Source: Halobacillus kuroshimensis DSM 18393
GTDB taxonomy: Bacteria > Bacillota > Bacilli > Bacillales > Halobacillaceae
Direction: 5' to 3'
Assembly (NCBI RefSeq): GCF_000425705.1
Contig: NZ_AUDY01000011.1
Coordinates: 124,001-188,000, forward strand
Length of the DNA: 64,000 bases
Numbering within the stretch: the stretch's first letter is position 1; each line of letters opens with the position of its first letter. Of this stretch, positions 9,979 to 13,422 are shown piece after piece. The position numbers and the translations under genes were made by a program. Under the pieces are notes generated by a model, which saw nothing but the letters and a program-made list of their open reading frames with translations, did no database searches and was not told where the DNA came from.

Positions 9979-12132
9979 ATGGAAAAGGTGGTCATCTTAG
10001 CCGAAAAACCCTCGCAGGCAAAAGCCTATGCCGAGGCCTTTACCGTGCAAAATAAAACGAAAACCCATATACAATTAAAACCTGACCATACGTTCCCGGA
10101 TGGAGCGGTCATTACGTGGGGGGTCGGCCATTTAGTTGAGCTGAAGGAGCCCCACGATTATAAGCCCGAATGGAAAAAGTGGAAGCTGGATCAGCTGCCG
10201 ATCGTTCCGGACCGGTACCTTGAAAAAGTTTCCAAAGGGAAATGGGATCAGTTCCAAGCCGTCAAAAAACTGTTCCAAAGCGCTGATGTGATCATCAATG
10301 CTGCGGACGTCGACCGGGAAGGCTCTAACATTTTCTACAGCATCCTCCGCCTTACGGGGGTGAAAAACAAGCCTGTCAAAAGGCTTTGGATCAACTCCCT
10401 CGAGCGGGATGAAGTGCGCAAAGGATTTCAAAACCTGCAGGCCAATGATAAGGATCTACGGATGTTTGAAGAAGCCAAAGCCCGCCAGATCAGTGACTGG
10501 CTGGTCGGTATCAACGCCAGTCGTCTGTTTACTCTGCTGCTGCAGAAAAAGGGTTTTGGCAGCTACCTGTCGATTGGACGCGTCCAGTCCCCGACCGTGT
10601 ATTTGATCTACCAGCGTCATAAGGAAATTGAAAGCTTTGTCTCTGAGCCCTTTTACCAGATTGAAGGTCAGTTCCAGGCGGAGAAAGGCTCTTATAAAGG
10701 GCTGGCTAAAATCAAGGAAAAGGATAAGGCAAAAGTACAAGCCTTTATGGATGAGTACGGTTTAAAGGAGAATGAATCGCTGTCTGGTGTTGTGGAAAAT
10801 GTTGATAAAAAGACGAAGTACATCAAATCACCGAAGCTTCATTCGCTATCCACGCTGCAGAGTGTCGCGAACCGGCGTTGGAAGTATACACCATCCCATG
10901 TATTGAAAACGATGCAGAAGCTGTATGAGAAAAAACTCGTCACCTATCCACGGACGGACTGTAACTTCATAACGGAAAGTGAATTTTCCTACTTGGTGAA
11001 AAATCTGGATGGGTACCAGAAAACGCTGAACGTGTCGTTTACGCCGGTTTCCACGAAGCCGAAGAAGCGGTACGTCGACAGCAGCAAGGTGCAGGAGCAC
11101 TATGCGATCATACCGACAAAATCGGTGCCGACAGAGAAGAAACTGAGCGGGCTGAGCCGTGATGAGCAGAACATTTACAATGAGGTGCTTGCAACGACGC
11201 TTGCCATGTTCCATACCGATTACATTTATGAAGAAACGACCCTGTACACGCATGTAAAAGAGCTGCCGTTTAAGACGACCGGTAAGCGCGATGTCAGTCA
11301 AGGGTGGAAGGAACTGTTTCCGAAGCCGGCCAAAGCGAAGGAAAAGGAACCCCTCCTTCCTGAAGTTCATCAGGGAGAAGAAGTGGACGCGAAGCTTCAT
11401 ATTAAAGAAAGCATGACACAGCCTCCGAAGCCGTACACTGAAGGTCAGCTGATCAATATGATGAAGACATGCGGAAAATTGATGGATGACGAAGGGGACG
11501 TTGAAATTTTAAAAGAGGTCGAAGGTCTGGGAACCGAAGCAACGCGTTCAAGCATCATCGAAACTATCAAAGCGCAGAATTATATTGAAGTGAAGAAGAA
11601 TAACGTCTATGTAACGGAAAAAGGTAAGATGCTCTGTGAAGCCATCGAAGGCACACTGTTGTCGAGTCCATCCCTTACGGCTAAGTGGGAGACGTATTTG
11701 AAGAAAATCGGCAGCGGTGAAGGCTCCAGACAGGTGTTTCTTAAGCAGACCGGCCAATTTATAGAAAAACTCATTCAGGAGACCCCGGAGGCTCTGCAGC
11801 AGGTGGAAGTCCGCAGTACCGGGGAAAAGACATCCCGGGGCAGCAGCAAAGAACCGATTGCCAAATGTCCATCCTGTCAGACCGGTGAGATTATGGACCG
11901 CTATAAGTTTTATGGCTGTTCTAATTACAAGGAAGGCTGTAAGGTGACTTTTCCGAAGAAGCTTGCCGGCAAGACGCTGACAAGAAATATGATCAAGACG
12001 CTTTGTGAGAAGAAGAAAACGAAGGTCCTCAAAGGATTTAAGGGCAAAAAGCCGTTCAGCACAGCCTTGAAACTGGACGAGAACTTCAGTATAAAGTTTG
12101 ACTTTGAAAGCAGAAATAAGCAGACCACGTAA
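9979..12132 (+). CDS. topB: DNA topoisomerase III
   Basis: A 717-residue type IA topoisomerase. The Toprim domain starts at VVILAEKPSQAKAYAEAF, with ADVDREG supplying the acidic metal-binding residues. The catalytic Tyr is in VTYPRTDC at about residue 323. A C-terminal zinc-finger-like region (CPSCQTGEI...YGCSNYKEGC) and a basic tail follow. It relaxes and decatenates DNA during replication and recombination. The length fits Bacillus TopB. A strong terminator follows five bases after the stop. Confidence 0.96.
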   Translation: MEKVVILAEKPSQAKAYAEAFTVQNKTKTHIQLKPDHTFPDGAVITWGVGHLVELKEPHDYKPEWKKWKLDQLPIVPDRYLEKVSKGKWDQFQAVKKLFQSADVIINAADVDREGSNIFYSILRLTGVKNKPVKRLWINSLERDEVRKGFQNLQANDKDLRMFEEAKARQISDWLVGINASRLFTLLLQKKGFGSYLSIGRVQSPTVYLIYQRHKEIESFVSEPFYQIEGQFQAEKGSYKGLAKIKEKDKAKVQAFMDEYGLKENESLSGVVENVDKKTKYIKSPKLHSLSTLQSVANRRWKYTPSHVLKTMQKLYEKKLVTYPRTDCNFITESEFSYLVKNLDGYQKTLNVSFTPVSTKPKKRYVDSSKVQEHYAIIPTKSVPTEKKLSGLSRDEQNIYNEVLATTLAMFHTDYIYEETTLYTHVKELPFKTTGKRDVSQGWKELFPKPAKAKEKEPLLPEVHQGEEVDAKLHIKESMTQPPKPYTEGQLINMMKTCGKLMDDEGDVEILKEVEGLGTEATRSSIIETIKAQNYIEVKKNNVYVTEKGKMLCEAIEGTLLSSPSLTAKWETYLKKIGSGEGSRQVFLKQTGQFIEKLIQETPEALQQVEVRSTGEKTSRGSSKEPIAKCPSCQTGEIMDRYKFYGCSNYKEGCKVTFPKKLAGKTLTRNMIKTLCEKKKTKVLKGFKGKKPFSTALKLDENFSIKFDFESRNKQTT

Positions 12133-12136
12133 AGAG

Positions 12137-12160
12137 GAGTCCTGCGTCAGGACTCTTTTT
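12137..12160 (+). terminator. Terminator of topB
   Basis: GAGTCCTG-CGT-CAGGACTC is followed by TTTTT. Confidence 0.93.
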
Positions 12161-12428: not shown

Positions 12429-13388
12429 ATGAAAAGATTCGGTGTATTAACAAGCGGAGCAGATGCTCCGGGAATGAATGCAGCCATCCGGGCTGTTGTC
12501 CGTTCCGGTATTTATTACGGTGTAGATATGCTTGGAATCCAATATGGTTTTCAGGGTCTTATAGATGGAAAAATCGAGAAGATGGATGCTGCATCTGTCG
12601 GATCGATCATGCAGCGGGGCGGAACGATATTACAGTCCTCCCCTTCTGATGTAGTTTTTTCTGAAGAAGGTAAAGCGAAGGCACTTCAAATGATCAAGCA
12701 GCATGGAATCGATTCCCTTATCGTCATCGGTGGGAAAGAGTCGCTGCAGGCAGCGGCTGTTCTGGAAGAAGCCGGCTTACCCACTGCCGCGATTCCAGCG
12801 ACGATTGATTCTGATATTCCTGGTGTTTATGAAGTCATTGGTTTTGATACAGCTCTGAATACGGTAATGGATTACATTGACAGGATCCGGGATACGGCTT
12901 CCTCCCATGAAAAGTCTTCCATTATTGAAGTGATGGGCCGGGACACCGGTAGTCTTGCCCTTTGGTCCGGACTTGCCGGCGGGGCGGAAAACATTTTGAT
13001 TCCTGAGAAAAAAGAGGACCTGGACTCCATCGTTGAGCAGATCAAACAGGGGCCGTCGCGCAGCAAGCGCTACAGTATCGTTGTTGTTGCAGAGGGAACC
13101 GTGAGTGGGATCGATCTCAATGAACGACTGAAGCAGGAGGCAGGCATCGAGTCACGTGTAACGGTTCTCGGCCATACTCAGCGCGGAGGTGCCCCGACAG
13201 CGGCCGACCGGATTCTCGCCAGCCGCCTTGGAGCCTATGCCGTCGATCTGTTGATCAAGGATCAATCAGGTGTGATCGTCACTATAAAGGATAATCAGCC
13301 TGAAGCCCTTACCTATGGATCTGTCCATGCGAAAACGGTACAAGTGGACGAAGACGTGTACAACCTATCCTCTCGTTTATCCATATAA
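12429..13388 (+). CDS. 6-phosphofructokinase paralogue with altered ATP/Mg site
   Basis: A 319-residue protein collinear with bacterial PfkA. The fructose-6-phosphate side is kept: TIDSDIPG (Asp127 and Asp129 equivalents), VMGRDTG (Arg162), SRVTVLGHTQRGG (Arg243, His249, Arg252). The nucleotide side is not: SGGDSPG is SGADAPG, the Arg72-Cys73 region is QSSPSD, and the Mg-binding GGDGS is GGKES, so Asp103 is Lys. This suggests a pseudoenzyme or a protein that binds sugar phosphate for regulation. It is monocistronic, with a structured leader and its own terminator. The start at 12429 gives the same length and N-terminus as PfkA. Confidence 0.85.
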   Translation: MKRFGVLTSGADAPGMNAAIRAVVRSGIYYGVDMLGIQYGFQGLIDGKIEKMDAASVGSIMQRGGTILQSSPSDVVFSEEGKAKALQMIKQHGIDSLIVIGGKESLQAAAVLEEAGLPTAAIPATIDSDIPGVYEVIGFDTALNTVMDYIDRIRDTASSHEKSSIIEVMGRDTGSLALWSGLAGGAENILIPEKKEDLDSIVEQIKQGPSRSKRYSIVVVAEGTVSGIDLNERLKQEAGIESRVTVLGHTQRGGAPTAADRILASRLGAYAVDLLIKDQSGVIVTIKDNQPEALTYGSVHAKTVQVDEDVYNLSSRLSI

Positions 13389-13390
13389 AA

Positions 13391-13422
13391 AAACTTCCCA
13401 TCTTCAGGATGGGAAGTTTTTT
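13391..13422 (+). terminator. Terminator of the Pfk-like gene
   Basis: AACTTCCCATC pairs with GATGGGAAGTT around TTCAG, followed by TTTTTC. Confidence 0.92.

What the first reader, a model, noticed from the sequence alone, without database searches (positions are those of the whole stretch)
12429..13388. Phosphofructokinase paralogue that has lost its ATP/Mg site but kept its sugar-phosphate site
The Mg-binding Asp103 (GGDGS) is Lys (GGKES), the G11 loop is changed to SGADAPG, and the Arg72-Cys73 region is gone. The F6P residues Arg162, Arg243, His249 and Arg252, and the catalytic Asp127 region, are all present. This selective pattern suggests a sugar-phosphate-binding sensor or a regulator that assembles with the true PfkA, not a decaying gene.
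Basis: partly seen in the sequence, partly recalled or inferred. Interest (0 to 1): 0.68.

Follow-up and report, generated by a model that had tools for sequence, protein, structure and literature searches.

The report
Donor-site-dead phosphofructokinase twin in Halobacillus
Halobacillus bacteria carry, beside their normal glycolytic enzyme phosphofructokinase, a well-conserved twin that has lost the residues for holding ATP but still looks built to assemble and perhaps to bind sugar phosphate, so it is probably a regulatory subunit like the one animals and yeast evolved separately.

Summary
The gene is real and intact: 12429-13388, 319 aa, in a Halobacillus genome. A normal accA-pfkA-pyk locus and a third, PPi-type PFK gene lie elsewhere in it.

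The paralogue ('PfkX', my label) is not decaying. It is in 21 of 22 genus genomes and 24 of 44 family genomes searched, always beside canonical PfkA. It forms one clade (100/100) under purifying selection (dN/dS 0.06-0.22). Its donor site is erased (Asp103, Gly104, Gly108, Gly124: 0/24 each; mean retention 0.02 against 0.655 over PfkA-invariant sites). A set of active-site-interface residues is kept (0.97).

Four of 24 have also lost their own His249 and Asp127, yet keep Lys162 and Arg243, which serve a neighbour's site. I therefore favour a non-catalytic subunit that co-assembles with PfkA (0.45) over a self-contained sugar-phosphate sensor (0.28). Assembly, ligand and regulation are untested.

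Closest precedent: the C-terminal half of eukaryotic PFK, whose ATP pocket was lost while its sugar pocket became an effector site. Eight searches of one open-access library listed no free-standing bacterial counterpart.

The parts
12429..13388 (+). pfkX (provisional name): donor-site-dead phosphofructokinase paralogue, 319 aa
   Evidence: Open frame; PF00365 333.8 bits; passes NF002872 but misses the ATP-PFK equivalog TIGR02482 (356.1 against cut-off 371.35 bits)
12459..12461 (+). codon 11, Gly to Ala (donor site)
   Evidence: Gly 22/22 in PfkA, 2/24 in PfkX
12735..12740 (+). codons 103-104, Asp-Gly to Lys-Glu (Mg/ATP motif GGDG to GGKE)
   Evidence: PfkX: R13 K9 I1 L1 at 103; E19 D5 at 104
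12912..12914 (+). codon 162, Arg to Lys (residue that reaches into the neighbouring subunit's F6P site)
   Evidence: Lys 24/24 in PfkX, Arg 22/22 in PfkA; role of Arg162 from a passage of PMC12203962
13155..13184 (+). codons 243-252: Arg243, His249, Arg252 (F6P site) kept in this protein
   Evidence: Arg243 24/24, His249 20/24, Arg252 22/24 in PfkX
12132..12160 (+). terminator-like hairpin after topB, upstream of pfkX
   Evidence: 13-pair stem and T tail (2 such sites found in the stretch, 1.2 expected by shuffling), so not proof of function
13388..13422 (+). hairpin just after pfkX, with A- and T-tracts paired in the stem (likely terminator)
   Evidence: read by eye from the sequence; not flagged by the scan

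Best explanation
PfkX arose by duplication of pfkA in or near the family that holds Halobacillus. Its phosphoryl-donor pocket was filled in, so it is unlikely to work as an ATP- or typical PPi-dependent PFK. It most likely persists as a non-catalytic subunit that co-assembles with PfkA: it offers Lys162 and Arg243 to a PfkA neighbour's fructose-6-phosphate site, and its own pocket and the effector-site arginines let it tune the affinity or allosteric response of the mixed tetramer. Shown: intact frame, donor-site loss, one origin, purifying selection, constant company of PfkA, retention of a set of interface residues. Inferred: loss of activity, co-assembly, ligand, and the direction of regulation.
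For: Donor site: 8 PfkA-invariant sites keep the PfkA residue at a mean of 0.02, against 0.655 over all 224 such sites; 0 of 20,000 random sets as low. Glycines 104, 108 and 124 are replaced in 24 of 24 and Gly11 in 22 of 24, while Gly101/102 are kept 24 of 24. Seven residues named in passages of PMC12889660 (E. coli PFK), six as interface contacts and Gln251 as a fructose contact, are kept at 0.97 (89 of 20,000 random sets as high). In the subclade G001, G010, G019 and in G012 the cis residues are gone (His249 to Asp 4/4; Asp127 to Glu or Asn 4/4; Asp129 to Asn or Thr 4/4), but Glu161, Lys162, Arg243 and Thr156 stay, each 4/4. All 24 genomes with PfkX also have PfkA. dN/dS 0.057-0.215 in the 15 of 17 pairs with a finite value. 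[quoted passage not shown]
Against: No direct evidence of any interaction. In the 21 of 24 loci whose surroundings I examined, pfkX is not next to pfkA; it is a single gene in shifting neighbourhoods. All 44 family genomes have PfkA, so co-occurrence has no power. The kept interface residues would equally serve a PfkX homotetramer, and that set was chosen after the fact from an E. coli paper. Other sets are not above random: Glu161/Arg162/Arg243 by exact identity 0.67 (10,038 of 20,000 as high), effector-site residues 0.80 (3,822 of 20,000); the residues reaching the neighbour's effector site changed (His215 to Tyr/Phe 24/24, Lys214 to Arg 23/24). Arg162 is Lys, which may weaken the neighbour's site, and PMC12889660 (passage) says 161 and 162 were later shown not to be essential for allosteric coupling. 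20 of 44 family genomes do without PfkX.
Confidence: 0.45

Rival explanations
1. PfkX is a self-contained homotetramer that binds a sugar phosphate (F6P, FBP or another) and acts as a sensor or buffer, with a protein partner other than PfkA.
For: Own F6P residues largely kept: Glu222 24/24, Arg252 22/24, His249 20/24, Met169 19/24, with a basic residue at 171 in 21/24. In three genomes pfkX lies divergently beside genes for a PEP-utilising PPDK-type enzyme and a kinase/pyrophosphorylase, found by sequence cluster and named by Pfam in one of the three.
Against: 4 of 24 orthologues have Asp at 249, which should repel the 6-phosphate, yet keep Lys162 and Arg243. No conserved partner gene next door in 21 loci. 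Retention at the catalytic and own-F6P residues (0.79) is not above random sets of invariant sites (3,606 of 20,000 as high).
Confidence: 0.28
2. PfkX is still an enzyme with another phosphoryl donor, for example PPi, with Lys/Arg103 replacing the PPi-binding lysine.
For: PPi-PFKs also have an acidic residue at 104 and a residue larger than Gly at 108 (PMC12203962 section 9; mapping of its numbering to 108 is mine); PfkX has Glu/Asp104 24/24 and a bulkier residue at 108 24/24. Asp127 is kept in 16/24.
Against: PPi-PFKs keep Asp103 (GGDD) and have Lys124; PfkX has Asp103 0/24 and Ala/Ser124 24/24. The base at 127 is Glu, Tyr or Asn in 8/24 and Thr125 is Ala in 4/24. The genome already has a PPi-type PFK gene (L003).
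Confidence: 0.12
3. PfkX has moved to an unrelated role (scaffold, RNA or protein binding) that only needs the PFK fold.
For: Functional residues differ between subclades while the fold is kept.
Against: The seven interface-region residues are kept more than random invariant sites, and Arg21 24/24, Arg25 23/24, Arg154 22/24 and Glu187 24/24 of the effector site persist (that site as a set is not above random).
Confidence: 0.12
4. A decaying duplicate.
For: PfkX evolves faster than PfkA (stem branch 0.64 changes per column; higher dN/dS).
Against: 24 of 24 frames without an internal stop; dN/dS 0.057-0.215; present in 21 of 22 genus genomes.
Confidence: 0.03

Closest known systems
C-terminal (regulatory) half of eukaryotic PFK-1, e.g. 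human PFKM (PDB 4omt)
   Same: A duplicated PFK unit whose ATP pocket is lost while a sugar pocket is kept; shares Ala11 (10/24), Phe41 (21/24), Glu104 (19/24), Ala105 (17/24) and Ala124 (22/24) with the human C half
   Different: Separate gene, not fused; no sign of common origin, since all 24 score higher against the human N half than the C half; keeps Asp127 in 16/24, where the human C half has Ser. Of 12 columns where PfkX and the human C half both leave the catalytic residue, only 3 show the same new residue
Canonical bacterial PfkA (Geobacillus stearothermophilus PFK, PDB 6pfk/3u39)
   Same: Same length and fold (Foldseek TM 0.77, 53% identity, on a model of mean pLDDT 74)
   Different: Donor site erased, Arg162 Lys, Asp59 Ser
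Alpha/beta hetero-oligomeric yeast PFK (PMC12203962, section 5 read); plant PPi-PFK alpha (regulatory) and beta (catalytic) subunits (recalled, no call)
   Same: Homologous PFK subunits in one complex
   Different: Yeast subunits are fused doubles; the plant enzyme uses PPi; neither is bacterial
Prozyme-type dead paralogues, e.g. T. brucei AdoMetDC prozyme (PMC5201418, start of abstract in a search listing)
   Same: A catalytically dead paralogue in a functional complex with its live partner
   Different: Unrelated enzyme; partnership shown there, not here

Membership tests
Phosphofructokinase superfamily (PF00365) | Match over the curated score | tested here: met
   333.8 bits against 30.9
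ATP-dependent 6-phosphofructokinase (PfkA) | NCBIfam equivalog TIGR02482 cut-off | tested here: not met
   356.1 against 371.35 bits; the window genome's own PfkA scores 453.7. The broader subfamily NF002872 is met (372.1 against 253)
ATP-dependent 6-phosphofructokinase (PfkA) | GGDG donor motif with Asp103 and Gly104 | tested here: not met
   GGKE in the window; Asp103 0/24, Gly104 0/24
ATP-dependent 6-phosphofructokinase (PfkA) | Catalytic base Asp127 | tested here: met
   Present in the window protein; only 16/24 across orthologues
ATP-dependent 6-phosphofructokinase (PfkA) | F6P-site residues Arg162, Arg243, His249, Arg252 | tested here: not met
   Three of four in the window protein; Arg162 is Lys
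ATP-dependent 6-phosphofructokinase (PfkA) | Enzyme activity | not testable with these tools
   needs an assay
PPi-dependent PFK | GGDD with Lys124 (PKTIDXD) and a residue larger than Gly at 108 | tested here: not met
   GGKE, Ala124; the acidic 104 and the larger residue at 108 fit, Asp103 and Lys124 do not
Eukaryotic PFK-1 C-terminal regulatory half | ATP pocket lost, sugar pocket kept | tested here: met
   At residue level in the window protein, with Lys for Arg162; in 4 of 24 orthologues the sugar pocket is further altered
Eukaryotic PFK-1 C-terminal regulatory half | Tandem fusion to a catalytic half; common origin | tested here: not met
   Free-standing 319 aa; groups at 100/99 with the family's PfkA plus one PfkA of a neighbouring family in the tree (which held no eukaryotic rows); nearer the human N half
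Eukaryotic PFK-1 C-terminal regulatory half | Sugar-bisphosphate binding that regulates a catalytic partner | not testable with these tools
   needs binding and kinetics
Pseudogene | Broken frame or neutral evolution | tested here: not met
   No stops in 24 frames; dN/dS 0.057-0.215

The most novel reading that the evidence does not exclude
Bacteria independently invented, as a separate gene, what eukaryotes obtained by fusing two PFK units: a dead-donor-site regulatory subunit that forms mixed tetramers with PfkA and turns the old active site into a sugar-phosphate effector site. In one subclade even that sugar site is gone, leaving a pure in-trans modulator.
Probability: 0.35. Interest if true: 0.75.

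Novelty: new variant of a known kind. Interest (0 to 1): 0.55.

Why it matters
PFK is the textbook allosteric enzyme, and the step from a simple bacterial tetramer to the double-size, heavily regulated eukaryotic enzyme is explained by duplication, fusion and loss of one active site. A bacterial lineage that carries the duplicate unfused, with the donor site erased in all 24 relatives found, would be a living analogue of the intermediate in which mixed assembly and the first regulatory use of a dead site could be measured directly. It also warns that annotation may call these genes 6-phosphofructokinase: the protein passes the NCBI subfamily model for the ATP enzyme.

Tried and rejected
Kinship to the eukaryotic C half: phmmer placed the best stretch of PfkX on the C half in 7 of 11 two-half eukaryotic rows (muscle and platelet types and one yeast subunit; not liver or three other yeast subunits), but that of PfkA on the N half in 11 of 11, which looked like kinship. 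Pairwise scoring of all 24 against both human PFKM halves showed N above C every time, so I read the phmmer result as an effect of the N-half match being split by its insertion. Exact-residue convergence is modest too: 3 of 12 columns.

Origin from another paralogue class: L098-L105 and L107 (Lys162 + Phe249, donor site intact) share Lys162 with PfkX, so I tested them in a tree; PfkX groups with PfkA of its own family and of one neighbouring family (100/99), not with them. Two long-branch rows (L037, L041) were left out of that tree; both are in the tree, which warns that long branches meet at L037.

Operon or conserved-neighbour evidence: none consistent in the 21 of 24 PfkX loci examined (G008, G013 and G021 were not). 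Rfam: only two sub-threshold hits near the gene. CcpA-type operator (recalled consensus): 4 matches in the window, none at the gene; 24 of 100 shuffles had as many. The sigma-70 scan finds 3 promoter-like sites against 1.8 (sd 1.5) expected. The AlphaFold model is moderate (mean pLDDT 74.4, pTM 0.67, 20 sequences) and supports only the fold. L031 and L038-L041 were dropped from the PfkA reference set before the counts (22 rows left), as they are from other families or are second copies. Which positions make up the donor site is partly recalled. In the order-wide search the list of matches was cut by the tool, but it is ranked by score. The second-copy survey covers 20 of the 23 copies under 60% identity to PfkA; two more (L040, L041) were fetched earlier, one (G261) not at all. 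The effect of an Asp103 mutation on PFK activity is known to me only by recall.

Full report
What is there. Window 12429-13388 encodes a 319-residue protein of the phosphofructokinase family. The genome is a Halobacillus: the 91% orthologue in genome G014, of the same genus, lies on a contig of the same length (280,302 bases) as the Halobacillus litoralis contig found by name. The genome holds three PFK-family genes: this one; a canonical pfkA in an accA-pfkA-pyk cluster (neighbours named by eye); and a 388-residue PPi-type gene (over the cut-off of NCBIfam NF010675) beside a gene with a fucose-isomerase C-terminal domain. I call the window protein PfkX; the name is mine.

Lys103, Glu104, Ala11 and the lost Arg72-Cys73 are correct. 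Asp127, Asp129, Arg243, His249 and Arg252 are present. Arg162 is not: it is Lys.

Distribution. A profile of 20 PfkX proteins separates two score groups in the 44 genomes of the family: 24 matches at 494-601 bits (PfkX) and 44 at 439-472 bits (PfkA). The gap is partly built in, since 20 of the 24 made the profile. PfkX is in 21 of 22 genus members, 2 of 11 in genus g4, 1 of 1 in g5, and none of 10 in three other genera; every one of the 44 has PfkA. Of 299 genomes sampled across the order (12 in this family), 8 have a match of 494 bits or more, all in this family; no match elsewhere passes 468 bits. PfkX is one clade with 100/100 support. With other PFK paralogues of the order added, it groups at 100/99 with the family's PfkA plus the PfkA of one neighbouring family; its exact place among those is weak (93/35). 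The g4 copies nest among genus copies (93/97 for the enclosing fork) while their PfkA groups with g4, which suggests horizontal transfer.

It is kept by selection. No frame among the 24 has an internal stop. Nei-Gojobori dN/dS is 0.057-0.215 in the 15 of 17 PfkX pairs with finite values, and 0.000-0.034 in the 6 PfkA pairs available; the pairs share branches, and some dS values are near saturation.

The donor site is erased. Across 24 PfkX and 22 PfkA, Asp103 is kept 0/24 (R13 K9 I1 L1), Gly104 0/24 (E19 D5), Gly108 0/24, Gly124 0/24 (A22 S2), Lys77 0/24, Lys111 0/24, Arg72 1/24, Gly11 2/24; Cys73, itself not invariant in PfkA, 12/24. The eight PfkA-invariant donor sites keep the PfkA residue at 0.02 on average; 224 PfkA-invariant sites average 0.655; none of 20,000 random draws was as low. 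Acidic 104 and a residue larger than Gly at the position I map to 108 are features by which PPi-PFKs exclude ATP, according to the review PMC12203962 (section 9 read). But PfkX also lacks Asp103 and Lys124, so it does not fit the PPi type either.

The sugar side and the interfaces. Glu222 24/24, Arg243 24/24, Arg252 22/24, His249 20/24, Met169 19/24, Asp127 16/24; Arg162 is Lys 24/24; position 171 is Lys 11, Arg 10, acidic 3. Overall retention of the catalytic and own-F6P residues (0.79) is not above random (3,606 of 20,000 as high). What is above random is a set that passages of PMC12889660 place at the active-site interface, with the fructose contact Gln251: Asp12, Asp155, Thr156, Gln251 and Gly254 at 24/24, position 250 at 23/24, position 246 at 20/24 (mean 0.97; 89 of 20,000 as high). 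That set was chosen after the fact. The set Glu161/Arg162/Arg243 scores 0.67 by exact identity, because of Lys162, and is not above random. At the effector site Arg21 24/24, Arg25 23/24, Arg154 22/24 and Glu187 24/24 are kept, but Asp59 is lost in 24/24, and the neighbour-reaching His215 has become Tyr or Phe and Lys214 mostly Arg; the site as a set (0.80) is not above random. A phosphate ligand such as PEP is therefore more plausible than ADP; that is inference.

In cis against in trans. Genomes G001, G010, G019 and G012 carry PfkX with Asp249, Glu or Asn at 127, and Asn or Thr at 129. Their own site is unlikely to bind F6P in the usual way or to catalyse. Yet Glu161, Lys162, Thr156 and Arg243 are unchanged in all four. 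Residue 162 acts on the neighbouring subunit's F6P (PMC12203962, passage); that Arg243 also does so is recalled. This is the best clue that PfkX serves another subunit's active site, and PfkA is the obvious chain with the same geometry. A purely structural reason for keeping them is not excluded, and PMC12889660 (passage) notes that 161 and 162 proved not essential for allosteric coupling.

Context. pfkX is a single gene with a terminator-like hairpin before it and a hairpin after it (read). In the 21 of 24 loci examined the neighbours change between species (topB, DUF454 and DUF1456 genes, named by Pfam in the window, and others named by eye). In three genomes it lies divergently beside a PPDK-type gene and a kinase/pyrophosphorylase gene (sequence clusters; Pfam names for one of the three).

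Structure. The AlphaFold2 model (mean pLDDT 74.4) matches Geobacillus PFK best (6pfk chain A, TM 0.77, 53% identity). It supports the fold only.

Comparison with the known. [quoted passage not shown] PfkX parallels this in a separate bacterial gene and in part by the same residues (Ala11, Phe41, Glu104, Ala105, Ala124). It shows no kinship to that half: all 24 score higher with the human N half, and exact convergence is 3 of 12 columns. Eight answered paper searches of an open-access library listed no paper that by title or abstract start treats a bacterial non-catalytic PFK paralogue; of the hits I opened passages or sections of three (PMC12203962, PMC12889660, PMC2990764). Subscription journals are mostly missing from that library.

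Verdict. A genuine, conserved PFK paralogue with an erased donor site: sure. A regulatory subunit of PfkA: the most likely reading at 0.45, unproven.

Noticed in passing
L098-L105, L107 (other families of the order): Second-copy PFKs with an intact donor site but Arg162 to Lys and His249 to Phe; perhaps a kinase for another sugar phosphate.
   Followed up: partly
L113-L116, L041: PFK paralogues with GGEGS (Asp103 to Glu) and an altered effector site; L113-L116 form one clade at 100/100 (L041 not in that tree).
   Followed up: partly
L003:1492-2658: The genome's third PFK gene has GGNGT (Asn103) with PKTVDND (Lys124), beside a gene with a fucose-isomerase C-terminal domain and, by eye, a GntR-like regulator.
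   Followed up: no
L093, L094, L095: pfkX divergent to PPDK-type and kinase/pyrophosphorylase genes in the three genomes whose PfkX has Asp249 and an acidic residue at 171 (Pfam for L094 only).
   Followed up: partly
L088 (G031), L086 (G034): Genus g4 PfkX nests among Halobacillus PfkX; in G031 the upstream neighbour looks like a transposase by eye, not tested by a family search.
   Followed up: no
G006: The one genus member without PfkX also lacks a match to the neighbouring DUF454 gene.
   Followed up: no
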